Positions 1-60,321 of a stretch of DNA of 64,000 bases are shown piece after piece. The DNA is taken from the IMG/VR virus record IMGVR_UViG_3300022205_000001, positions 104,077 through 168,076 of that record; one strand, 5' to 3'. Under the pieces are notes generated by a model, which searched no databases, was not told the origin of the DNA, and worked only from the letters and a program-made list of their open reading frames with translations. Source of the DNA: a virus. The position numbers and the translations under genes were made by a program. The first letter of the stretch is position 1, and each line of letters opens with the position of its first letter.

Positions 1-2149
1 CACTTGCGGCTACTGTGTTTGCGGTATTGGCTTGATTGAACGCAGCATTCGCATGATCTCGCGCTGTTTGGGCAAGTGTTTGATCAACCGTGACATTGGA
101 TGCACTGGTAATATGCCCTCGTGCATCAATCGTTATCTGTGGAATTGAGGTTGTAGTACCATAGGTTGTAGCTGTGACGCCTGAAGTGGCATGACTAATG
201 ATACCGGTAATTGGATCATAATTAATCGGAGCGGTGTTGCTAATGTTGGCTCGGATTTGTGTTGCCGTATAGATTGCGGTGTTGGCATTGGCATACGCGG
301 CATTGGCTCGTGTAAACGCTGCATCCGCATTGATGGTTGCAATATTGGCTTGAGCATATGCTGAAGCGGCTACTGTGTTTGCAGTATTGGCTTGGTTGAA
401 GGCACCGTTGGCATGAGCATATGCTCCATTCGCCGTATCACGCGCAAATTGGTCAAGCGCCGAACCGCCAGTTGCCGCAATCGTAATAGTCCCTCGGTCA
501 TTTGTAATGGCAATTCCTGATCCTTGAGTTAAGGGACGAAGATCAAACCCACCTGAGACCGTATTACCGATGAGGACTGCCCCATTTGTTGTGACCCCAG
601 TATTTGCTACAGCGGTATTGGCTTGATTGAAGGCACCGTTGGCATGATCTCGTGCTGTTTGCGCCAATACAGTTCCAACATTCGCTTGTGTAAATGCACC
701 GTTGGCATGATCTCTAGCAGTTTGGGCTAATGTGGTCCCAGTGTTCGCTTGTGTAAACGCGCCATTCGCATGATCTCTAGCAGTTTGCGCCAATACAGTT
801 CCAACATTCGCTTGAACAAAGGCAGCATCCGCATTGGTGGTTGCGATATTGGCTTGATTGTATGCAGAGGCGGCTACTATATTAGCAGTGTTGGCTTGAT
901 TGAAGGCAGCATTCGCTTGATCTCGTGCAAATTGATCTGTGCCACTTCCCCCAGTAGAGGCAATAGTAATAGTATCATTTGGGGCATCGGTAGTAATGAC
1001 GATTCCCGATCCTGCAACAAGTGTTAATGTATCAACATTAGAGTCTGCTACGACATTGGCTTGTCCTGCAACATTGATTGTCACGAATGCATTTTGAGCA
1101 ACGGAATTGGCTTTTGTGTATGCCGCATTCGCTTGATCTCGTGCCCATGCATCAGTGGCTCCCGCCCCAGTTTCAATAGCTACATTACTGACTGATACAA
1201 TATGTCCTTTATCATCCACTACGAATACTGGTATGTGGGAGGAATCCCCATAGCCTGTTGCCGTGACTCCAGAGACGGCGTGACTGATTACTCCAGTAGT
1301 AGAGTCATATCGGATGGGGGTGGTATTGGAAATGTTGGCGCGGATTTGTGTTGCCGTATAAATGGCGGTATTGGCATTCGCATAGGCAGCATTCGCTCGT
1401 GTAAACGCAGCATCGGCATTGGTGGTTGCGATGTTTGCCTGAGCATAGGCAGACGCCGCTATAATGTTGGCAGTATTCGCCTGGTTGAAGGCAGCATTCG
1501 CTTGATCTCGTGCGAATTGATCCTGCCCGGAGGGTAGTGCAATTGCCGTATTCGTGATTGCGGTGACATGTCCCTTTGCGTCAACCGTAACAACTGGAAT
1601 ATGTGTAGTGTTACCATACGTAGTCGCTGCAATTCCAGAATTCGCATGGGAAATGACGCCAGTGGTCGAATCATAGTTGATTGGTGTTGTATTGGAAAGA
1701 TTTGCCCGAATTTGACTAGCAGTATAGATCGCCGTGTTCGCATTACTAAACGCAGCATCGGCATTGGTGGTTGCGATGTTCGCTTTACTGAATGCGGCAT
1801 TCGCTTGATCTCGCGCAAATTGATCGGTGGCTGATCCTCCGGTAGCTGCGATATCTATTAAATTATTTGCAGGATCGGTGGTGAGTACAATCCCCGTTCC
1901 TTGACGAAACCGAACAATATCTGAAGTCGTTGTGGCAACAACATTAGCTTGTCCAGCAATATTGACAACCCCAAATGCATTCGCACTTGATCCCCCTCCT
2001 CCACCTGTAGCCAAAAATACAATGGTCCCATTGGCGTGTTTATAGAATAACCGTCCATCGGCACGATTAATTGCCAATTCTCCATTGGCCAAAGTGGTTG
2101 GAGTATTTCCTGACGTGGCGCTATTTTTAATTTGTACGGTGACGTTCAT
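1..2149 (-). CDS. Long tail fibre protein, N-terminal part (runs off left edge)
   Basis: An uninterrupted minus-strand reading frame starts at ATG 2149 and is still open at base 1, so at least 716 residues are present and the C-terminus is missing. The N-terminus (MNVTVQIKNSATSG, then GELAINRADGRLFYKHANG) is the type found at the start of many phage fibres. The rest is built from two repeat types: Ala/Asn-rich segments (RDQANAAFNQANTA and variants), and three copies of a module with PINYDSTTGVISHA followed by VDAKGHVT, near 1565-1690, 1200-1325 and 100-235. This is typical of trimeric receptor-binding fibres. The start overlaps the stop of the preceding gene by one base (TAATG). The receptor-binding tip would lie outside the window. 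Confidence 0.85.
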   Translation of the reverse strand, partial: MNVTVQIKNSATSGNTPTTLANGELAINRADGRLFYKHANGTIVFLATGGGGGSSANAFGVVNIAGQANVVATTTSDIVRFRQGTGIVLTTDPANNLIDIAATGGSATDQFARDQANAAFSKANIATTNADAAFSNANTAIYTASQIRANLSNTTPINYDSTTGVISHANSGIAATTYGNTTHIPVVTVDAKGHVTAITNTAIALPSGQDQFARDQANAAFNQANTANIIAASAYAQANIATTNADAAFTRANAAYANANTAIYTATQIRANISNTTPIRYDSTTGVISHAVSGVTATGYGDSSHIPVFVVDDKGHIVSVSNVAIETGAGATDAWARDQANAAYTKANSVAQNAFVTINVAGQANVVADSNVDTLTLVAGSGIVITTDAPNDTITIASTGGSGTDQFARDQANAAFNQANTANIVAASAYNQANIATTNADAAFVQANVGTVLAQTARDHANGAFTQANTGTTLAQTARDHANGAFTQANVGTVLAQTARDHANGAFNQANTAVANTGVTTNGAVLIGNTVSGGFDLRPLTQGSGIAITNDRGTITIAATGGSALDQFARDTANGAYAHANGAFNQANTANTVAASAYAQANIATINADAAFTRANAAYANANTAIYTATQIRANISNTAPINYDPITGIISHATSGVTATTYGTTTSIPQITIDARGHITSASNVTVDQTLAQTARDHANAAFNQANTANTVAAS
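633..821 (-). repeat. Three tandem 63-bp repeats inside the fibre gene
   Basis: Three in-frame 63-bp units begin at 633, 696 and 759. Each encodes 21 residues of the form ARDHANGAFTQANVGTVLAQT. The first and third units are closest to each other over the cagttccaacattcgcttg part. In-frame units let fibre length change by recombination without frameshift. Confidence 0.8.
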
Positions 2150-2738: not shown

Positions 2739-4670
2739 GAATGTGATGGACGTTACATAGAGGTCGGTAGAGGTATCAGCTTGATAGGCAACAATTCGTT
2801 GTGTGTCCCCCAATTCTATTGGCGTCATTGGATAAATTTGACCATTTCTGGATTGGTTATGTATTACTCCCCTTGGAGTAAATGATGGGTTCGTAAAGTT
2901 GGTGACCGATGTAATTGCGGAGGTATATGTTCCTGATCCACCAAACGCACTAATGCGTTGTACCGCAAGAAATTGGGCTGTACATTTAATAGGAGGAACA
3001 ACATATGATAAGTCTACATATACCTCTCCTTGAGGAGAGGTATTGCTAGTCCATGCCCACCAATCAGAATCAGTCCCGATTATTATGGTTTTATCTACTT
3101 GTTTATAAGATTTGAACCGACTTTGTGCATTGGTGACGGCGTAACTGATTAATGCCTTTTGTGTGTATCCACTTGGAAGAGTTATCCCATCCCCATACTG
3201 ATCACAATAAATCTTAAAGAACAAATCTGCGGGTCCAGGTCCCCCACCACCTCCAATATTTGCCGTAACTGACCAATGTTGGGCAACCGCATTCCAACTA
3301 TGACATTGACCATACCCCAAATAAATACTTAGGTCTTGGGAGGCATTATACCCAACAGAGTCCATCCAGTTTCGTTGATTTGCATCAGTCAATGGGGCAG
3401 TATTTCCATAGATAAGAAATGCATTTGCATTGAGTGTAACTTCAGGCTGTCTATCAGTATTCACCACAAAATGATACCGTCCTCCTTGTGTTAGAGTGGC
3501 ACGGGTATCAAAAATAAACAACACATCCCCTGCACTAGAAGACCCTCCAATAATCCCTCGTTCAAGTGAAGCGAGGGTTCTACTTGTGGCAAGTACTGCC
3601 CCACTAGCATTTCCCGTTCCATCATCAGGTTCAAGGGTAATCCAACAATTCCCTGTTGGAATTAATTGTGTTCCAATTCGGAGTTGTACGCCATAGACTT
3701 TAGCTGTGAGTGAAGGGATAAAACTTTGTGATATTTTGGTGATATACCGAGTGAATGGATTGGTGCCACTTGTCGCATTAAATCCAAGAAAAGCAATTTC
3801 AGTATCCAATGCTTCATCCCAATGTTGGTCCAGAACCCGTTGCTTCATCCGATATAGAAGTAAAGCTTTATTTCCATTAGTAGGATTATAGATCGCGTAT
3901 ACGGCATACCAGGTATTTGCTGATAAGGCGCTGGAAGCGTCGATTCCTCCAGCCCCACTACTCATCAGATTCGCGGTAAGATTACTCCATCCAGAGATGT
4001 AATCCCCATTCTCCATGACAATAACATTCGCGTGTTTGAGGAGTAATGTCGTAGCCGATTTATAGGGGTGATAATGCGTCCCAATCACGAGCCCCGATGT
4101 TTCCTGTGGCGTTGGAGCATCTTCCCAGGACACCTTGATATTAGAAGATGTATTGACGGTCAACACTTGCCCATTGCTACCTCCCGCTAACCGATGAGCG
4201 GTGTTTGGACTAAATCCCACCAATAAATCCCCTTGTTGTAGGAACAAGTTTGCTGTCGTATCAAATCCACTTCCGCCAGAAATTGAAGTAATCGCATTAT
4301 CCACATATTCTTTTGTGACGACTCCGGAGTTAGAATCCGGGCTCCCCGTTATGATTCCATAGGTGACCGTTGCTAGATTGATCGTACCATTCCCAATCGT
4401 AGTGGTATTCGCGGTAAGAACATTTGCAATCAGATTATTGATCGTCGCCGTATCGCAAAACGCATTATCAATGTTCATGGTTGTTGCGTTCAATGAGGGG
4501 AATTCATAGACCACATCATATGATTGATTTGCGGTGTTATACCGAACTTCTCCACCCCAATCCACCATATTAGCCACTACGTCTACTTTATAGCTGACTT
4601 CAGATTCACCGATAGGTTCGGGTACATTGGGAGAAGGAAGCTGTGGTGTGGGAACCCAAGTAAATGGCAT
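2736..4670 (-). CDS. Tail fibre/tip protein, paralogue 1
   Basis: A 644-residue protein starting MPFTWVPTPQLPSPNVP. It shares a layout with the next three genes: a Pro-rich N-terminus, an Asn/Thr-rich beta stretch, a GDLLVGFSPNTAHRL segment followed by GQVLTV near residue 160, a globular middle, and a C-terminus ending in an aromatic residue (VTSITF). The GDLLVG...GQVLTV segment is a recurrent element of phage fibres. The C-terminal half contains LPSGYTQKALISYAV, conserved in all four paralogues. Role: probably receptor-binding or side-fibre tip. It is the last gene before a late promoter. Confidence 0.75.
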   Translation of the reverse strand: MPFTWVPTPQLPSPNVPEPIGESEVSYKVDVVANMVDWGGEVRYNTANQSYDVVYEFPSLNATTMNIDNAFCDTATINNLIANVLTANTTTIGNGTINLATVTYGIITGSPDSNSGVVTKEYVDNAITSISGGSGFDTTANLFLQQGDLLVGFSPNTAHRLAGGSNGQVLTVNTSSNIKVSWEDAPTPQETSGLVIGTHYHPYKSATTLLLKHANVIVMENGDYISGWSNLTANLMSSGAGGIDASSALSANTWYAVYAIYNPTNGNKALLLYRMKQRVLDQHWDEALDTEIAFLGFNATSGTNPFTRYITKISQSFIPSLTAKVYGVQLRIGTQLIPTGNCWITLEPDDGTGNASGAVLATSRTLASLERGIIGGSSSAGDVLFIFDTRATLTQGGRYHFVVNTDRQPEVTLNANAFLIYGNTAPLTDANQRNWMDSVGYNASQDLSIYLGYGQCHSWNAVAQHWSVTANIGGGGGPGPADLFFKIYCDQYGDGITLPSGYTQKALISYAVTNAQSRFKSYKQVDKTIIIGTDSDWWAWTSNTSPQGEVYVDLSYVVPPIKCTAQFLAVQRISAFGGSGTYTSAITSVTNFTNPSFTPRGVIHNQSRNGQIYPMTPIELGDTQRIVAYQADTSTDLYVTSITF

Positions 4671-6484: not shown

Positions 6485-8383
6485 CTAAAACTCTATGGTT
6501 GCAGGCATTAGTTGAATTAACGTCGTGGCTAGAACCGCTGAAACAGCTTGTTCCTCAGCAAGTATCGGATTGGTAAAATAAAATCCCGTTCCTGGAGGAT
6601 TGTTGGCGTAAATAACTCCATCAGTCTCTACTGTTCCGAGTGTGTCAGCCCCCGCCCCCTCATAGGTATTTGCCGTCAATGCTGGGGCATTTAATTCACC
6701 AAATATATTGAAGGGAGATCTTGCCCCCGTACATAGATAACTGATTTGCACGAGACAGGGAACTGGAGGTACCCCAATTCCTAGATGAAGGGTGAACATA
6801 CGAGTTACAGGGATACTATATGGTTGGTCAAATCTCACATATCCGCTCCCTGACACATAATCAATAAATCTCCAATCCCAATGATGTAAGGTGATAATTT
6901 TCCGATTACGTTGGGTGTATTCGCGGAATGTTCCAAAGTGCCCGGTGGACACATAACTAATCAGACACTTTTGGGTATACCCCGTTGGCATCACCACTGG
7001 AGTGTTGTTGGCTTCAATGAATACACGAAAACCAACATCAATCATACTTATTGTTGGCCTCCAGCTATTGGTATTTGCACTAAAACTTCTTGCGTTTCCT
7101 CCAGTGTATGCCTCAGTTGCAGTCCCATAGATTACCGTATGATGGGCAGCATTGGCTCCATTCGCAATTGGATAATCGGAGTGATACACAAGGCAGTAGT
7201 TACCGTTTGCGGTGACGGTATAGGGATCACGGAAAACAAATCGTAATCGTCCAGGTGCGGTAGATCTTGGTAATTCTCTCGTCATCCTATAATTAGTTGC
7301 AGAAAGAATGACTCCATCCGCATTTCCTGTCCCATCCTGAGCCTGAAGTGTTAGCCAACAATTTCCGGTGGGATCACCAGAACGAGCAATGGCCATTTCC
7401 GCACTGGTTACTTTTCCGGTAATGGGGGCAACAAATTGCTGTGCGACAAATAATGTGGTATCATCACCAAGAAATGCACGTCTTACTACTTCTGGTGTTG
7501 TTGAAGGAACTGAGTCAGTAATGTATACCCATGGGCGACGATCTAGTGCTTGATGAAATAATAGCCCTCGGCTTTTGGTAGTCGGATTCCGAATGGCATA
7601 GACTTCATACCAGGTATTCGCAGTAACCGTTCCGGTATCGAGCCCATTGACGCCATTGACGAGAATATCAGCCGTAGTGAGGTCCCAATTTCGTGTGACC
7701 TTGCCATCATCCATTACAATTTCATCGGCTTGGTGTAATTGTACTCGTGTGTTGCAGAGAGGGTAATCGGTATGCGTCCTGACAAATATATTTTTGAATG
7801 AGGATTTGTCTCCCGTCCCTCCCACAGACGACCATCGAACTTTTGTGTTGGGGGTTGGAGACATCACTAATATTTGTCCGTCGGTTCCTACGGCTACACG
7901 ATTTGCCGTATTATCGGATACCCCCAGTATCAAGTCCCCTGCGGCTTGAATGAGGAGTTGGAGGTTACCTCCTTCGGGAGTAGAATTTGCAATCAACGCA
8001 TCCACATACCCCTTCGTGACCATGTGCAGATTCGCCGTACTATTCCCGGTCATATACAGCATCACAGTATTGAGAGAGTTTATGGATGCATTTCCGATTG
8101 CTGCGGTATTGATAGTGAGAGAATTGGCGGTCACAAGATTGGCAGTAATATTTCCTCCCGTCAAATGATCGGTGTGAAGATTACTGACATTCAGAGGAGT
8201 ATACCGATAGAGTACATCATACCCTACATTCAGGGTATTGTAGGAGAGAACCCCCATTGGAGGGGGATGGACTTCAACCGTATTCGCTACGAGTCCAACT
8301 TGGTTTGAGACCGTGTTGGACCCGTAGAAGAGAGGATCTACTTGAGGTGGTGTTTGTGGTTCATTGACCCAGACAAATGGCAT
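6485..8383 (-). CDS. Tail fibre/tip protein, paralogue 3
   Basis: A 632-residue protein starting MPFVWVNEPQTPPQVDP. It has the shared layout: GDLILGVSDNTANRV with GQILVM, a PTGYTQKCLISYV segment, and a C-terminal aromatic residue (LMPATIEF). The WVNEPQTPP leader is shared with paralogue 2. No enzymatic domain is visible. Confidence 0.75.
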   Translation of the reverse strand: MPFVWVNEPQTPPQVDPLFYGSNTVSNQVGLVANTVEVHPPPMGVLSYNTLNVGYDVLYRYTPLNVSNLHTDHLTGGNITANLVTANSLTINTAAIGNASINSLNTVMLYMTGNSTANLHMVTKGYVDALIANSTPEGGNLQLLIQAAGDLILGVSDNTANRVAVGTDGQILVMSPTPNTKVRWSSVGGTGDKSSFKNIFVRTHTDYPLCNTRVQLHQADEIVMDDGKVTRNWDLTTADILVNGVNGLDTGTVTANTWYEVYAIRNPTTKSRGLLFHQALDRRPWVYITDSVPSTTPEVVRRAFLGDDTTLFVAQQFVAPITGKVTSAEMAIARSGDPTGNCWLTLQAQDGTGNADGVILSATNYRMTRELPRSTAPGRLRFVFRDPYTVTANGNYCLVYHSDYPIANGANAAHHTVIYGTATEAYTGGNARSFSANTNSWRPTISMIDVGFRVFIEANNTPVVMPTGYTQKCLISYVSTGHFGTFREYTQRNRKIITLHHWDWRFIDYVSGSGYVRFDQPYSIPVTRMFTLHLGIGVPPVPCLVQISYLCTGARSPFNIFGELNAPALTANTYEGAGADTLGTVETDGVIYANNPPGTGFYFTNPILAEEQAVSAVLATTLIQLMPATIEF

Positions 8384-8404: not shown

Positions 8405-10744
8405 TTAGAAACTAATCGCTATCGGATACAGTTTAAGGTTTTGTGCCGGTACTTTTACGACAACCGCTTGGTGTTCCACGAAAAGTGGGGCAATTGGAGT
8501 TGTAGTTGTGCCTCCACTGGTTGAGGCTTGAATACCTCCCCCAAGGTTTTCACTAAAAGTGGTGGTAAGATCCAGAGCATGAAATCGTCCAATAGCCATT
8601 TGCTGGATTGCCGTTGATCCTTCAATGAAGACCACACTGCAAGTAATGGGAGGAACGAAGGAATTCAATTCAACAATATCAATCCAACTTGGGGTTGTTC
8701 CATAGATAGAATGCATGGCCCCCCATTTTTGAGAAATAGAGGCATGGATGGTTCGCTCAAATTGACTACTCTCTTTCAATTTGGATACATCATCAGTAAA
8801 CACATACCCCAACAAGCATTTTTGATCGTATCCAGTCGGCATAGTCACCGTGACGTTGTTCGCTTCCATCTGTGTGCGATAAAAGAATGTATTCAGAGCG
8901 AGGGTTTGACCTGGTTGTGTGGTTCCCTGAATATTCACCCACGAAGCACCAGTATTTCCATATGGCACACCACGGTTGACGCCGTTTGCTCCAATATTCG
9001 TGTTTGCGCCAGAGTAAGCAACGTTAATAAATGCAGTGGTACTTCCCGCGTAATCTGAATTGAAAATCCAGAAGTATGACGTTCCTGCGGTAAGAGAAGT
9101 AGTATTGTCAAAGACGAACCGAACGTTTGCCCCCGTTGATGGACAACGAGATACATCCATTTTTCTACTGGTTACTAAAGTCGTTCCGGCTGGAACTTCT
9201 GCGGTATTTGCTTCAAGTGTTACCCACATATTTCCTGTTGGGGTTCCTGTCTTCATTAGCTTGAGATCAATGCTTGCAATGTTTCCTGTGACATTCGGGG
9301 TGAAACTCTGAGCAAGTTTGATATACAAGTTAGATGTATTGTTCGCTCCCAATGAATTTAATGCCGTAGTTGCGCTTGCCATAGGCCAGAACGTATTCAC
9401 AAAGGTATTCTGATCTGGTTTACGATCTAGGGCACGATGGAGAATGAACCCTTGTATTCCCGTTGACCGTTGACGAATAGCATAGACTTCATACACGGTG
9501 TTGGCATTCGCAGACCCACCATCTAATCCATTCACTCCAGAGGCAGTGATATCAATTGTTGAGGGAACTGTCCAGTTAGACACTATTTCTCCATCATCCA
9601 TCGTAACTTCATCTAGACGATAGACGATGAGTTGTGTACCATTTGCTGATTTATCTGCAAGAGAGGTGGTCATAGTAAAACCACGGAATCTTCCCGCTGC
9701 ACGATTTGCCCAACGTAACCCTGTGGTTTGATTGGTATCAACGATCAACGTCTGTCCGTTAGATCCTGTTGACAGCACCCCAAAAGTATTTGCCCCAGTA
9801 CCAGGAATCAAGTCACCTTTTGCGGCATAGGTGATCTTATTGACAAGATTCCCACCCGCCCCAGTATCCGCATAATTCTTGGTTGCAATACCCAAATTGG
9901 TTGTTGGATTTGCTGCCATGGTTCCTGTCGTCAAGTTTGCCGATGATGCATTCAACGTGGCTGCGGTCAAATTAGAAATATTAGCCGTGGAAGTATTCAA
10001 GGTAATAATATTCGCTAATACTGCATTAGCAAATGGGGTGTGCAATACCGATCCGACATTAAGAGTCGTGACATTGGACAACGAAAGATTCATCGCTCCA
10101 ACATTGAACGAGGTGACATTGGCATGGGACACATTGAGGGTTCCTACTGTCGCTCCAGTAATATTCGCAGTAGATGAATTCAATAATGTCACATTGGCAT
10201 TTGTTACGGTAGTAAGAGTTGCCGTCAAGCTAGTTGCTTGGAATGTTCCAGTCACCGTTGCGTCAGTGATATTTGCAAATGAGGTATTCAATACTGGAAC
10301 TGTGAGACTGGTTACTGATAAGGTTGTGATAGCCAGAGTTCCAATATTAGCAGACTGAGCATTCAATGAGTACACATTTGCTCGATCATCCACTTGGATG
10401 AAATTGACATTCGCATTTGTCGTGGTTACTCGTGTCGCAGAAATATTACCGATGGTAGCTCCACCGATGTTGGCGACGGTAAGGTTAGCGACTGACGCAT
10501 TAGCCGTGGCTATCGTGATATTGGATACATTACCCGTTGAGAGGTTCAACGTTCCAACATTCGCCGTGGTAATCAACGCCGTGTTCCCGACATTGATCCC
10601 TACATCAGGATTGGAGAATGTCCAATTCGCATTGGAGACAACCGCCGGTCCATCCGTAAAATTATTGGCAACCGCAACAAGACCGGAAACGGTAGTTACT
10701 AATTGTCCGAATGTATTAGCCAAAGAAATCTGTTCTATTGCCAT
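8405..10744 (-). CDS. Tail fibre/tip protein, paralogue 4 (longest)
   Basis: A 779-residue protein. The first ~290 residues are many short Asn/Thr/Ala-rich repeats (NVGTLNLSTGNVSNITIATAN type) that should form a long beta-helical or coiled shaft. The remainder matches the other three paralogues: GDLIPGTGANTFGVL with GQTLIV near residue 320, PTGYDQKCLLGYV, and an ending LYPIAISF. Its N-terminus (MAIEQISLANTFGQL) differs from the other three, so it may be the member that anchors to the baseplate. Confidence 0.75.
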   Translation of the reverse strand: MAIEQISLANTFGQLVTTVSGLVAVANNFTDGPAVVSNANWTFSNPDVGINVGNTALITTANVGTLNLSTGNVSNITIATANASVANLTVANIGGATIGNISATRVTTTNANVNFIQVDDRANVYSLNAQSANIGTLAITTLSVTSLTVPVLNTSFANITDATVTGTFQATSLTATLTTVTNANVTLLNSSTANITGATVGTLNVSHANVTSFNVGAMNLSLSNVTTLNVGSVLHTPFANAVLANIITLNTSTANISNLTAATLNASSANLTTGTMAANPTTNLGIATKNYADTGAGGNLVNKITYAAKGDLIPGTGANTFGVLSTGSNGQTLIVDTNQTTGLRWANRAAGRFRGFTMTTSLADKSANGTQLIVYRLDEVTMDDGEIVSNWTVPSTIDITASGVNGLDGGSANANTVYEVYAIRQRSTGIQGFILHRALDRKPDQNTFVNTFWPMASATTALNSLGANNTSNLYIKLAQSFTPNVTGNIASIDLKLMKTGTPTGNMWVTLEANTAEVPAGTTLVTSRKMDVSRCPSTGANVRFVFDNTTSLTAGTSYFWIFNSDYAGSTTAFINVAYSGANTNIGANGVNRGVPYGNTGASWVNIQGTTQPGQTLALNTFFYRTQMEANNVTVTMPTGYDQKCLLGYVFTDDVSKLKESSQFERTIHASISQKWGAMHSIYGTTPSWIDIVELNSFVPPITCSVVFIEGSTAIQQMAIGRFHALDLTTTFSENLGGGIQASTSGGTTTTPIAPLFVEHQAVVVKVPAQNLKLYPIAISF

Positions 10745-46053: not shown

Positions 46054-47250
46054 TTATCCTTTCACGCATAACACCTGCCTCAACACGGCAACAACTTTGA
46101 CCAGATCCTTCTGATCTTCCATCACGGCATCAATGTCCTTGTATGCCGCAGGGATTTCATCCACCACACCTGCATCCTTACGACAGACAATTCCCGCGGT
46201 CTGCTTCTCAACATCCTCCGCGGTATACAGTTCCTTTGCCTTTCCTCGTGACAACTGGCGTCCGGCACCATGCGAACAAGAGCAAAACGAATCAGAGTTT
46301 CCTAATCCCTGCACAATGTAGGACCGGGTCCCCATTGAACCAGGAATGATCCCCATATCGCCCACGCGAGCCCGTACCGCACCCTTACGAGTGACAATCA
46401 CGTTCTCCCCGAAATGGTTCTCCCGTTCCGCATAGTTATGGTGACAGTTTATCATGACTTCTGGGTCAATGATACCATACTTATCACCAAAGATTACTTC
46501 TGCAATCGCCTGAAGCGTCAACTTCATCATGATCTCACGGTTCTTCATGGCGTAGGACTGTGCCCACTGCAAATCGCGCCAGTACGCATCAAACAGAGGA
46601 GTACCCTCCGGCAGATACGCCAAGTCTGGGTTTTCCAGCTTGATCATGAATTGCTGCATCAACTCCTTGGCACAGTCAATGTAATAGTTCCCGATCTTGT
46701 TTCCAATTCCACGAGAACCTGAATGCAGCATGACCCATACGTTGTTCTTTTCGTCTAAGCACACTTCGATGAAGTGGTTTCCACCACCGAGCGTACCTAA
46801 CTGAGCCAGAGTCTTATCAAGCAAACCCTTCGTAACAACTTCTGGAAGTTTGCAGTACCCAGGCATCATACCATTCCAAACAACCGCATCGTCGGTTGCC
46901 GTCTTATGCTGCCCCTGCCCAACAGGAATTGCCTTTGACAAGGCAGAAAACAAGGCATCCAATGAATCCGGTAAACGATCTGCTGAGAACGGCATCTGAG
47001 CCGCCATCATTCCGCACCCAATATCCACACCAACCGCAGCCGGAACCAACGCACCCTTCGTCGCCACTACAGACCCAACGGTTGCACCCTTTCCATAGTG
47101 AACATCCGGCATAGCCGCTACATGCTTGAAGATGAATGGTAACGCAGCCGTCTGGCGCAATTGCACCTCAGACTGTAGATCTACATTCTTCGTCCAAATC
47201 TTGACCGGAACCGTTTGCTTCTCGCCCGTCAATACCTTTGAAATTCCCAT
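46054..47250 (-). CDS. rtcB: RtcB RNA ligase
   Basis: 398 residues. RtcB hallmarks: DIGCGMMA (Cys metal ligand), GTLGGGNHFIEV, HSGSRGIGN, NCHHNYAERE, and SHGAGRQLSRGKAKE containing the guanylated His. RtcB joins 2',3'-cyclic phosphate (or 3'-phosphate) ends to 5'-OH ends using Mn2+ and GTP. In this phage it could repair tRNAs cut by host anticodon nucleases or seal tRNA-processing products. It has its own promoter and a gggggag ribosome binding site. Confidence 0.95.
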   Translation of the reverse strand: MGISKVLTGEKQTVPVKIWTKNVDLQSEVQLRQTAALPFIFKHVAAMPDVHYGKGATVGSVVATKGALVPAAVGVDIGCGMMAAQMPFSADRLPDSLDALFSALSKAIPVGQGQHKTATDDAVVWNGMMPGYCKLPEVVTKGLLDKTLAQLGTLGGGNHFIEVCLDEKNNVWVMLHSGSRGIGNKIGNYYIDCAKELMQQFMIKLENPDLAYLPEGTPLFDAYWRDLQWAQSYAMKNREIMMKLTLQAIAEVIFGDKYGIIDPEVMINCHHNYAERENHFGENVIVTRKGAVRARVGDMGIIPGSMGTRSYIVQGLGNSDSFCSCSHGAGRQLSRGKAKELYTAEDVEKQTAGIVCRKDAGVVDEIPAAYKDIDAVMEDQKDLVKVVAVLRQVLCVKG

Positions 47251-54498: not shown

Positions 54499-54573
54499 TG
54501 GTGCACGGTGTTGGTACTGCCCCAACTTAGTCCACTTTGTAGGAGTGGTGCATATCTTTCCTGCCCACCGTGC
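54499..54573 (-). tRNA. tRNA-Val (UAC) with C33
   Basis: Acceptor GCACGGT/ACCGTGC region, anticodon loop CCTACAA on CCACT/AGTGG, encoded CCA. Position 33 is C instead of the near-universal U. Confidence 0.82.
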
Positions 54574-54582
54574 GTTCTATTC

Positions 54583-54659
54583 TGGAGCCCCTTGTTGGAC
54601 TTGCACCAACCGTTTCCACTTTACCAAAGTGGCGTGTCAACTACCTCTACTTAAGGGGC
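54583..54659 (-). tRNA. tRNA-Thr (GGU)
   Basis: Acceptor GCCCCTT/AAGGGGC with U73, anticodon loop TTGGTAA on CCACT/AGTGG, T-loop TGCAAGT, encoded CCA. Confidence 0.9.
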
Positions 54660-54667
54660 ATATTGTA

Positions 54668-54995
54668 GTAGGAAGAACCATAGCCGGGGTTCTGTTCTAT
54701 TCCATCATTTCTCTAGGAATATCATTACTGATACCCTCAAGCCACCTACCCGTCAACATCATGAGAGCGTCACTTGTTCGTTGACCTATTTGGTGTTGCA
54801 CCACGTAGAGATTGTTCGTATCACCTCCCCATACTCTGAGCCTGATATGAGCAGTCTCGTATTATGAGTATGGTTCCTCGTCTCTTTAACTCTAATCCTC
54901 AGGTTACCCTGGGTGGCCGTTAGCCACTACGCTGCTCTTGGTGCCCCGAACTTCCTCTAGTGCATCAGTCACTAGCGATGGATCGTTCTTCCTAC
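54668..54995 (-). ncRNA. rnpB: RNase P RNA
   Basis: 328 nt closed by a perfect 11-bp P1 (gtaggaagaac/gttcttcctac). All hallmark segments occur in order: GAGGAAGTTCGGGGCACC (CR-I; E. coli GAGGAAAGTCCGGGCTCC), GGGTAACCTGAGG, AAAGAGACGAG in the CR-II/III area, a P12 hairpin CCATACTC/GAGTATGG, ACACCAAATAGG (E. coli GGCCAAATAGG), GGGTAGGTGGCTTGAG, CCTAGAGAAATGATGGA and ACAGAACCCCGGCTAT (CR-V). P2 (TCCATC/GATGGA) and P3 (CTAGTG/CACTAG) are intact. The P15-P17 area is reduced, without the GGU that usually binds CCA. It would process tRNA 5' ends with host or phage protein. Confidence 0.92.
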
Positions 54996-58134: not shown

Positions 58135-58968
58135 GGTGGGGTCTCTTATAGAGCGATCACAACCCCCTCTCGCTTTAGCTGAAACTTTTAGAGCGTCAGT
58201 CAGCCATCTTCGCTATCAGGTGCCTAGGTCCTCAGTTATTCCCCGGCAGGGAGGACTCCACGATAATTGCCGGGCCAGATGTTCCCATGTCTGCACCTGT
58301 TGGGGAACCCACGAATCGATCCGGTCCTCTTGGGAGCGGAAAATCTAGGGGTCAGTGATTTTAGTGGTCCCACCCCCAAGCCCCACCCTGCACTCCGTTC
58401 TCCGTCGCAAGGACCATGAACTTGCACAGGTCAGAGAATCTTAAGCTTCTCCGATAGGAAACCTTTGTTATGGCAGTGTTTCGTCTGCCTTAGTGCAGTC
58501 TTCCCTTTTACAAGAATGGAATCAACCCAGTGGTCAGCTTCCCTGCACATTCTATTTCTTTGAGTGCGAAAGGTGAACTAGAGGTTCCTCGTTCAGCTTC
58601 CTGAAAGATTAGCCAACCTTGCTGGCATCTCTTTCCTTCAGCACCGGACCGTATTTCTTCCCTCGGTGCCTGTGTCGCTTTGGGCGCGGTTATCACTCTA
58701 TAGTGGCCGCAGCAAGTTACCCGCCGTTCTTGTCGCATTGGGGCGCTTGCCTCACCCCGCCGATTTTATTGTAGGATCGCCCGTGCTGCGCGGGTTCTGA
58801 TCAGTGTTTTCCCCATGAATCGTATACTATTCATGGGCACTATTGGGTGCTACCCCAATTACATCCTACAATATTTACTCAAACTCTTTTGTCTATCAAG
58901 CGACAGATTCGCCTCTAGGCGCTTTATTGATCCGATTGGGATCGCTTATTCTGTCGCTCATTCATCAT
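58135..58968 (-). ncRNA. Large structured non-coding RNA, ~830 nt (GOLLD/ROOL-like candidate)
   Basis: An 830-base stretch with no credible gene but dense helices. Near the 5' end gcgacag (58900) pairs with ctgtcgc (58951). A perfect 11-bp helix (58767-58777 with 58863-58873) encloses CCCATGAAT/ATTCATGGG and CCCG/CGGG hairpins. Further stems include CACT/AGTG, GCACCG/CGGTGC, GCCA/TGGC, GGAGAA/TTCTC, AGGTGC/GCACCT and CCGGCA/TGCCGG. It follows directly after a strong promoter. Size, structure and location in a phage tRNA array match GOLLD or ROOL RNAs; I cannot confirm a family. Confidence 0.6.
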
Positions 58969-60080: not shown

Positions 60081-60157
60081 TGGTGCCTCTGGTAGGATTT
60101 GAACCTTCACTAAACAGGCTCTCGACCTGCCGACTCTGCCAATTGGTCTACAGAGGC
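60081..60157 (-). tRNA. tRNA-Leu (GAG), class I-sized, C33
   Basis: Acceptor GCCTCTG/CAGAGGC, A73, anticodon loop TCGAGAG on GCAGG/CCTGT, short variable loop, encoded CCA. Confidence 0.8.
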
Positions 60158-60161
60158 AATA

Positions 60162-60246
60162 TCATGGACAGAGTATTCTACCACTTGAACTACTAGCAGT
60201 GTGTAGCTGCTAACCAGGGCATTGAAACCTGGATCTCTCCGCTTAT
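60162..60246 (-). tRNA. Probable circularly permuted tRNA (anticodon probably CAU)
   Basis: In transcription order the 3' half comes first: anticodon 3' stem CGGAG, a T-arm-like CCAGG-TTTCAATGC-CCTGG, acceptor 3' strand TTAGCAG. After a 7-base linker comes the 5' half: acceptor 5' strand CTGCTAG, TA, D-arm GTTC-AAGTGGTA-GAAT, A, anticodon 5' stem CTCTG, then TCCATGA. The halves fit each other: acceptor 7/7 pairs, anticodon stem 5/5 (one G-U each). No CCA is encoded. The anticodon lies near the break; TCCATGA suggests CAU. Confidence 0.6.
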
Positions 60247-60321
60247 TGGTCTAGGCGACAGGATTCGCACCTGCATGGTCCCCGCCCCAAACGGGGTGGT
60301 CCACTCTTGACCCACGCCTAG
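60247..60321 (-). tRNA. tRNA-Pro (UGG)
   Basis: Acceptor CTAGGCG/CGCCTAG, anticodon loop TTTGGGG on CCCCG/CGGGG, T-arm GCAGG-TGCGAAT-CCTGT, encoded CCA. Confidence 0.9.

What the first reader, a model, noticed from the sequence alone, without database searches (positions are those of the whole stretch)
60162..60246. Circularly permuted tRNA gene in a phage
Between tRNA-Leu(GAG) and tRNA-Pro(UGG), a 3' tRNA half precedes its 5' half with a 7-base linker. Acceptor strands CTGCTAG/TTAGCAG pair 7/7, anticodon stem CTCTG/CGGAG 5/5, D-stem 4/4 and T-stem 5/5. Both stems joining across the break are hard to explain by two unrelated fragments. Permuted tRNAs are known from a few algae and archaea and need ligation. 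This phage encodes RtcB, the ligase that could close the circle.
Basis: partly seen in the sequence, partly recalled or inferred. Interest (0 to 1): 0.85.

Follow-up and report, generated by a model that had tools for sequence, protein, structure and literature searches.

The report
Permuted tRNA-shaped RNA gene in phages
A T4-like phage carries, in its tRNA gene cluster, a small RNA gene whose two tRNA halves are in swapped order; relatives conserve its shape but not the parts a working tRNA needs, so it is probably a tRNA look-alike with a sealed acceptor end rather than a tRNA used in translation.

Summary
On the minus strand, 60169-60241, a 3' tRNA half precedes a 5' half; acceptor 7/7, anticodon stem 5/5, T and D arms intact. 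It is conserved. A covariance model built only from three relatives finds it at 46.3 bits (E 2e-13; next 15.5). In three syntenic orthologues 12 of 22 pairs changed on both sides and still pair. Similar elements recur, mostly just after tRNA-Pro(UGG), in uncultivated T4-like phages that also encode RtcB and RNase P RNA.

The tRNA core is kept (U8, A14, T-loop T54/C56/A58), but decoding features are not: U33 is absent in the window (C33) and in about half the elements, no anticodon is conserved, and none of 12 encodes CCA, against 134/143 U33 and 141/143 CCA in ordinary tRNAs of these phages. Linkers are often short caps, some GNRA-like. This is the architecture of the tRNA-mimic domain of bacterial Y RNA (YrlA), though without its long basal stem or a detectable Ro60. 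Best reading: a stand-alone tRNA-mimic RNA with a sealed acceptor stem. A true permuted tRNA is possible but less likely. By-product: unannotated YrlA-like genes in other phage tRNA arrays.

The parts
60169..60241 (-). permuted tRNA-shaped element, anticodon-stem end to anticodon-stem end (73 nt)
   Evidence: leave-window-out covariance model 46.3 bits, E 2.1e-13
60237..60241 (-). CGGAG, 3' strand of the anticodon-like outer stem (first in the gene)
   Evidence: pairs with 60169-60173; 3 of 5 pairs changed on both sides among three orthologues
60214..60232 (-). T-arm, CCAGG TTTCAATGC CCTGG
   Evidence: T54, C56 and A58 kept in the orthologues
60207..60213 (-). TTAGCAG, 3' strand of the acceptor-like stem
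   Evidence: pairs 7/7 with 60193-60199; 5 of 7 pairs changed on both sides among orthologues
60200..60206 (-). CTACACA, 7-nt linker capping the acceptor-like stem; no CCA
   Evidence: linkers of 4-86 nt in other elements, none with NCCA after the acceptor strand
60193..60199 (-). CTGCTAG, 5' strand of the acceptor-like stem
60175..60192 (-). TA (U8, A9) plus D-arm GTTC AAGTGGTA GAAT (A14, G18G19)
   Evidence: U8 and A14 present in the elements compared by eye
60169..60173 (-). CTCTG, 5' strand of the anticodon-like outer stem; followed by TC, so no U33
60247..60321 (-). tRNA-Pro(UGG), immediately upstream; its CCA lies 5 nt before the element
60081..60157 (-). tRNA-Leu(GAG), immediately downstream; C33 by ARAGORN
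46054..47250 (-). RtcB RNA ligase
   Evidence: PF01139, 431.5 bits
54665..54994 (-). class A RNase P RNA
   Evidence: RF00010, 191.1 bits
49625..50569 (-). RlaP-type nucleotidyltransferase (RNA repair associated)
   Evidence: PF10127, E 3.7e-17

Best explanation
The element encodes a stand-alone tRNA-mimic RNA. It is co-transcribed with the tRNA array and released when the flanking tRNA-Pro 3' end and tRNA-Leu 5' end are matured (inferred). It folds into a four-way tRNA core with a D-loop/T-loop elbow, but is closed where a tRNA carries its amino acid (acceptor stem capped by the linker) and open where a tRNA carries its anticodon (shown by conserved pairing). It therefore cannot be charged as encoded, and in most family members could not decode. 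Its likely job is to engage proteins or RNPs that recognise the tRNA elbow and acceptor/T stack (RNase P, tRNA-modifying enzymes, exonuclease complexes or tRNA-targeting host factors) as a decoy or scaffold, as YrlA's tRNA-like domain does with PNPase. The partner is unknown; this last step is inference.
For: Structure: in three syntenic orthologues 95.5% of pair cells pair and 12 of 22 pairs show double compensatory changes, 0/500 shuffles; RNAalifold finds nearly the same fold unaided, with a 5-pair T-stem; six elements, 17 of 22 pairs compensated (alignment fitted to the model). Leave-window-out model E 2.1e-13. Core kept: U8, A14, and T-loop T54/C56/A58 in the four orthologue-type elements and most others; the 15-48 pair is A-U or G-C in several elements (by eye). 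Decoding features not kept: the nucleotide at position 33 is C, U, A, U in the window, L257_2, L096_1, L259, and U in 5 of 11 overall, versus 134/143 in ordinary tRNAs; CCA in 0 of 12 versus 141/143. Caps GTAA (L159), GAAA after an extra G-C pair (L257_3) and GACG (L254) look like stable hairpin ends. YrlA, a proven tRNA mimic (PMC8394870), has the same order: RF02553 aligns T-arm, capped stem, UA, D-arm over the L159 element.
Against: No expression or partner data. The window element does not match RF02553, lacks a long basal stem, and no TROVE/Ro60 gene is found. The outer stem is exactly 5 bp, the length of a tRNA anticodon stem, which fits a permuted tRNA better than YrlA. Some elements do have U33. 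Ordinary tRNAs here sometimes have C33 (9/143), the same letter as the window element. D-loop GG is lost in L096_1. The site is empty in G003, L252 and L256, so the element is dispensable. The elements come from a search that demanded pairing, so the set is biased towards paired ones.
Confidence: 0.55

Rival explanations
1. True circularly permuted tRNA gene: ends trimmed in the anticodon loop, sealed by phage RtcB into a circle, acceptor opened by RNase P (phage-encoded RNA) and a 3' nuclease, CCA added by the host.
For: Complete tRNA geometry with an exactly 5-bp anticodon stem, 7-bp acceptor and conserved core; linker lengths close to the known algal range of 5-85 nt (PMC3218864); RtcB and RNase P RNA in the phage group; joined halves are called tRNA by ARAGORN for some joins.
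Against: No U33 in the window and no consistent anticodon across orthologues; no CCA in any element; no BHB motif seen by eye; RNase P and 3' processing leave 5'-P and 3'-OH ends, not RtcB substrates; the orthologues' acceptor 5' strands share only 0-5 of 7 bases, against means of 3.8-5.2 in ordinary tRNAs (a weak contrast). Some caps are tetraloop-like.
Confidence: 0.2
2. YrlA-type Y RNA proper, reduced by loss of the basal stem, working with a host Ro60/Rsr and PNPase.
For: Same permuted order as RF02553; YrlA-like genes with a basal stem occur in tRNA arrays of other phages; rsr and Y RNA genes sit with rtcA-rtcB in some bacteria (PMC8394870).
Against: No basal stem: only 5 nt separate the element from the upstream tRNA CCA; no RF02553 match in the window; no TROVE gene in the phage or relatives. 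The host is unknown.
Confidence: 0.1
3. Remnants: decayed halves of one duplicated tRNA or of two tRNAs.
For: Arrays contain other partial tRNA duplications (for example L104 1081-1320); the site is empty in some relatives.
Against: Compensatory changes in all four stems among orthologues, 0/500 shuffles; recurrence in six records of this group (window, G001, G003, G037, G039, G040); the best-matching source tRNAs of the two halves generally differ, so pairing was probably not inherited from one tRNA.
Confidence: 0.06
4. An ordinary linear tRNA-like gene read the other way round: outer stem as acceptor with CCA (CTCTG-T-CCA), 7-nt loop CTACACA as anticodon loop.
For: In the window the outer stem is followed by TCCA and the 7-nt linker has U at the second position; L096_1 also has CCA beside its stem.
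Against: CCA is absent after the outer stem in the other elements; T-loop and D-loop motifs would sit in each other's places; linker length varies from 4 to 86 nt; ARAGORN and Rfam do not call it.
Confidence: 0.04

Closest known systems
YrlA (bacterial Y RNA-like A), Rfam RF02553
   Same: Gene order T-arm, capped acceptor-like stem, UA, D-arm inside an outer stem; tRNA elbow motifs; no anticodon; rtcB is a genomic neighbour of Y RNA genes in some bacteria (PMC8394870).
   Different: The window element has only a 5-bp outer stem, no Ro60-binding basal stem, no Ro60 gene found, and no RF02553 match.
Circularly permuted tRNA genes of red and green algae and Thermofilum pendens (PMC3978253, PMC3218864)
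   Same: 3' half, intervening sequence, 5' half; full cloverleaf after re-joining; comparable linker lengths.
   Different: Those keep U33 and a readable anticodon, have a BHB motif at the junction processed by tRNA-splicing endonuclease, and (in the alga studied) give aminoacylated tRNAs; here U33 and CCA are missing and no BHB was seen.
Phage tRNA arrays that counter tRNA-cleaving defences (PMC10264068, PMC11555353; titles and abstracts only)
   Same: Location in a large phage tRNA array beside RNA-repair genes.
   Different: Those are ordinary-order tRNAs that replace or resist cleaved host tRNAs.

Membership tests
circularly permuted tRNA gene | 3' half upstream of 5' half, all four stems formed | tested here: met
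circularly permuted tRNA gene | U33 and a readable, conserved anticodon after joining | tested here: not met
   C33 in the window; C, U, A, U in four orthologue-type elements; 5/11 U overall versus 134/143 in ordinary tRNAs
circularly permuted tRNA gene | acceptor end able to become NCCA (encoded, or added) | tested here: inconclusive
   not encoded in 12/12 elements versus 141/143 ordinary tRNAs; post-transcriptional addition cannot be excluded
circularly permuted tRNA gene | BHB motif at the junction | not tested
   none seen by eye in the flanks; no systematic search
circularly permuted tRNA gene | circular intermediate and mature charged tRNA | not testable with these tools
   needs RNA
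YrlA Y RNA (RF02553) | tRNA-like domain in T-arm, capped stem, D-arm order | tested here: met
   same order in the window and in the RF02553 alignment of L159
YrlA Y RNA (RF02553) | score over the Rfam gathering threshold | tested here: not met
   no RF02553 match at the element; best 12.4 bits anywhere in the record; threshold 69
YrlA Y RNA (RF02553) | long basal stem for Ro60/Rsr | tested here: not met
   outer stem 5 bp, upstream tRNA CCA 5 nt away
YrlA Y RNA (RF02553) | Ro60/Rsr (TROVE) partner | tested here: not met
   no PF05731 match over the cut-off in the own record or in 33 other phage records, several of them fragments; a host partner cannot be tested

The most novel reading that the evidence does not exclude
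A phage clade carries genuine circularly permuted tRNA genes, the first in bacteria or their viruses as far as the searched papers show, matured without BHB splicing through a circle closed by phage RtcB and opened by an RNase P whose RNA the phage also encodes.
Probability: 0.15. Interest if true: 0.92.

Novelty: new variant of a known kind. Interest (0 to 1): 0.68.

Why it matters
It shows a conserved, structure-selected RNA with permuted tRNA topology in phages, a topology otherwise described from algae, one archaeon and bacterial Y RNAs. Either reading is useful. A tRNA mimic carried next to RtcB, RNase P RNA and about 35 tRNAs would be a new viral way to act on the host's tRNA machinery. 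A real permuted tRNA would extend that phenomenon to bacteria and their viruses with a different maturation route. Standard tRNA finders and Rfam miss it, so such elements may be common in phage tRNA arrays.

Tried and rejected
A pattern scan of viral contigs for the exact element gave nothing, as expected from its divergence. DNA similarity to isolated phages found no relative of the element. RF02553 hits over 30 phage records were first taken as Y RNAs, but many proved to be junctions of adjacent ordinary tRNAs, which also ring in 11 of 14 control genomes; only those outside called tRNAs and with an outer stem were kept. A weak TROVE hit in G012 (12.7 bits) fell on an ORF that reads as a methyltransferase (by eye). 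The PF09511 RNA-ligase search was uninformative because the control did not ring either. MAFFT misaligned the wider element set (A4), so covariation was counted on three orthologues and on a model-fitted set. The evolutionary-rate argument (element identity 0.49-0.60 versus tRNA medians 0.63-0.73) overlaps the range of ordinary tRNAs and was not used as decisive. Single-sequence fold energy is uninformative for the window element. No terminator-like site was found near the element.

Full report
What is there. The window is the last 64 kb of a 168-kb linear virus record. Baseplate and gp32 genes mark it as T4-like. The stretch from about 50.6 to 62.9 kb on the minus strand is a tRNA array: ARAGORN tRNAs and a tmRNA, and Rfam adds further tRNAs and a class A RNase P RNA. 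RtcB, a DNA-ligase-type protein and an RlaP-type protein lie just downstream. Between tRNA-Pro(UGG) and tRNA-Leu(GAG) sits the reported element, exactly as described, on the minus strand.

Is it more than chance? Halves taken from different ordinary tRNAs of this phage group give acceptor 7/7 plus anticodon 5/5 in 0.17% of pairings, and 0.03% when the amino acid differs. A descriptor for permuted order scored the element 28.5; shuffles of the same 86 loci reached at most 23.2.

Relatives. RtcB, RlaP and HNH proteins led to uncultivated relatives with syntenic arrays. G001 has an element at the same place, after tRNA-Pro(UGG). L257 has two elements there, the second (6580-6652) closest to the window's; L259 (6498-6569) and L254 (6425-6489) have one each. 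Other permuted-order elements lie elsewhere in arrays: L227 2802-2917 and its counterpart in L096 about 2012-2125, L098 2613-2743, L257 9515-9587 and L104 3638-3791. G003, L252 and L256 have an empty site with the flanking tRNAs 4 nt apart.

Conservation of structure. On the window, L257_2 and L096_1, 95.5% of pair cells are standard pairs, 12 of 22 pairs have changes on both sides, and no shuffle of 500 reaches any measure; sliding the partners destroys it. RNAalifold, given no structure, predicts nearly the same fold. With six elements aligned to the model, 17 of 22 pairs are compensated, with the caveat that the alignment was fitted to the structure. A model built from L257_2, L096_1 and L259 only finds the window element at 46.3 bits, E 2.1e-13, with the next hit at 15.5. 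Junctions of ordinary adjacent tRNAs score up to about 28 bits with this model in other arrays, so 46 is well clear of that background. These searches required pairing, so the set is selected; the leave-out test and the synteny are the answers to that.

What kind of RNA? tRNA core features are kept: U8 and A14 in the elements compared, the T-loop T54/C56/A58 in most, G18G19 in most (lost in L096_1), and the 15-48 pair as A-U or G-C in several (by eye). Features needed for decoding are not kept. The base at position 33 is C in the window, U, A and U in three other elements of the same site, and U in 5 of 11 overall, against 134 of 143 in ordinary tRNAs of the group, the other nine being C. Placing the break elsewhere in the loop does not restore U33 consistently (by eye). 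None of 12 elements has CCA after the acceptor strand, against 141 of 143 ordinary tRNAs. Linkers range from 4 to 86 nt, and some are tetraloop-like caps (GTAA in L159, GAAA in L257_3, GACG in L254).

The known RNA with this order is YrlA. Its Rfam model aligns across the L159 element as T-arm, capped stem, UA, D-arm. YrlA's tRNA-like domain is modified by DusA and TruB and binds PNPase, its basal stem binds Rsr, and in some bacteria its gene lies with rtcA-rtcB (PMC8394870); Hughes et al. suggested that its tRNA-like domain might inhibit an anticodon nuclease (PMC7790460). L159 and eight phage loci found with RF02553 carry YrlA-like genes with an outer stem, in most GGATRC...GYATCC. The window-type elements differ: a 5-bp outer stem, an upstream tRNA CCA only 4-6 nt away in several, no RF02553 match, and no TROVE gene in the phage or relatives. 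So they share YrlA's tRNA-mimic architecture but are not members of YrlA on the features tested.

Conclusion. Shown: a conserved, covarying, permuted tRNA-shaped RNA gene. Inferred: release by processing of the flanking tRNAs, and function as a sealed-acceptor tRNA mimic. RtcB joins 5'-OH to 3'-phosphate or cyclic phosphate ends, which normal tRNA end processing does not leave (established enzymology; RtcB's substrates also in PMC7790460).

Limits. All relatives are metagenomic contigs without hosts or RNA data. Among papers held, none describing permuted tRNA genes in phages was found, but many papers are not held, and novelty rests on that search.

Noticed in passing
window 54665-54994 (-): Class A RNase P RNA gene in the phage tRNA array (191 bits); also in five of the ten relatives searched.
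   Followed up: partly
L228 1501-1616, L229 1501-1600, L230 1501-1614, L231 1501-1611 (-), L232 1501-1611, L233 1501-1564 (-), L234 1501-1561 (-), L239 1501-1616 (-), L159 3265-3385: Unannotated YrlA-like genes in tRNA arrays of other phages, most with a basal stem GGATRCNTNCAGCAA...GYATCCTG; 25-39 bits with RF02553, below its threshold of 69; no convincing TROVE gene found in those records.
   Followed up: partly
window 58225-58335 (-); L227 about 1850-1925 (-); L257 about 9430-9510: Similar non-coding stretch upstream of tRNA-Tyr (GTTCCCCA..GACATGGGAACATCTGG..GGAATAACTGAGGACCTAGGCACC) in related phages, without an Rfam match in the window; possibly another structured RNA.
   Followed up: no
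L104 1770-1841; L254 6356-6415: Similar two-hairpin element (ACTCGGC...GAG.GCCGG) after tRNA-Pro(UGG) in two relatives; seen by eye.
   Followed up: no
window 60081-60157 (-): tRNA-Leu(GAG) is read by ARAGORN with C33 in this phage and in five relatives.
   Followed up: no
window 54510-54585 (-); L006 about 4038-4112: tRNA-Val(UAC)-like gene with T-loop GGCAGTA, missed by ARAGORN; the window copy has C33. Similar T-loops occur in several tRNAs of the group.
   Followed up: no
L104 1081-1320: Near-identical tandem copies containing the 3' end of tRNA-Thr, evidence of recent duplication within the array.
   Followed up: no
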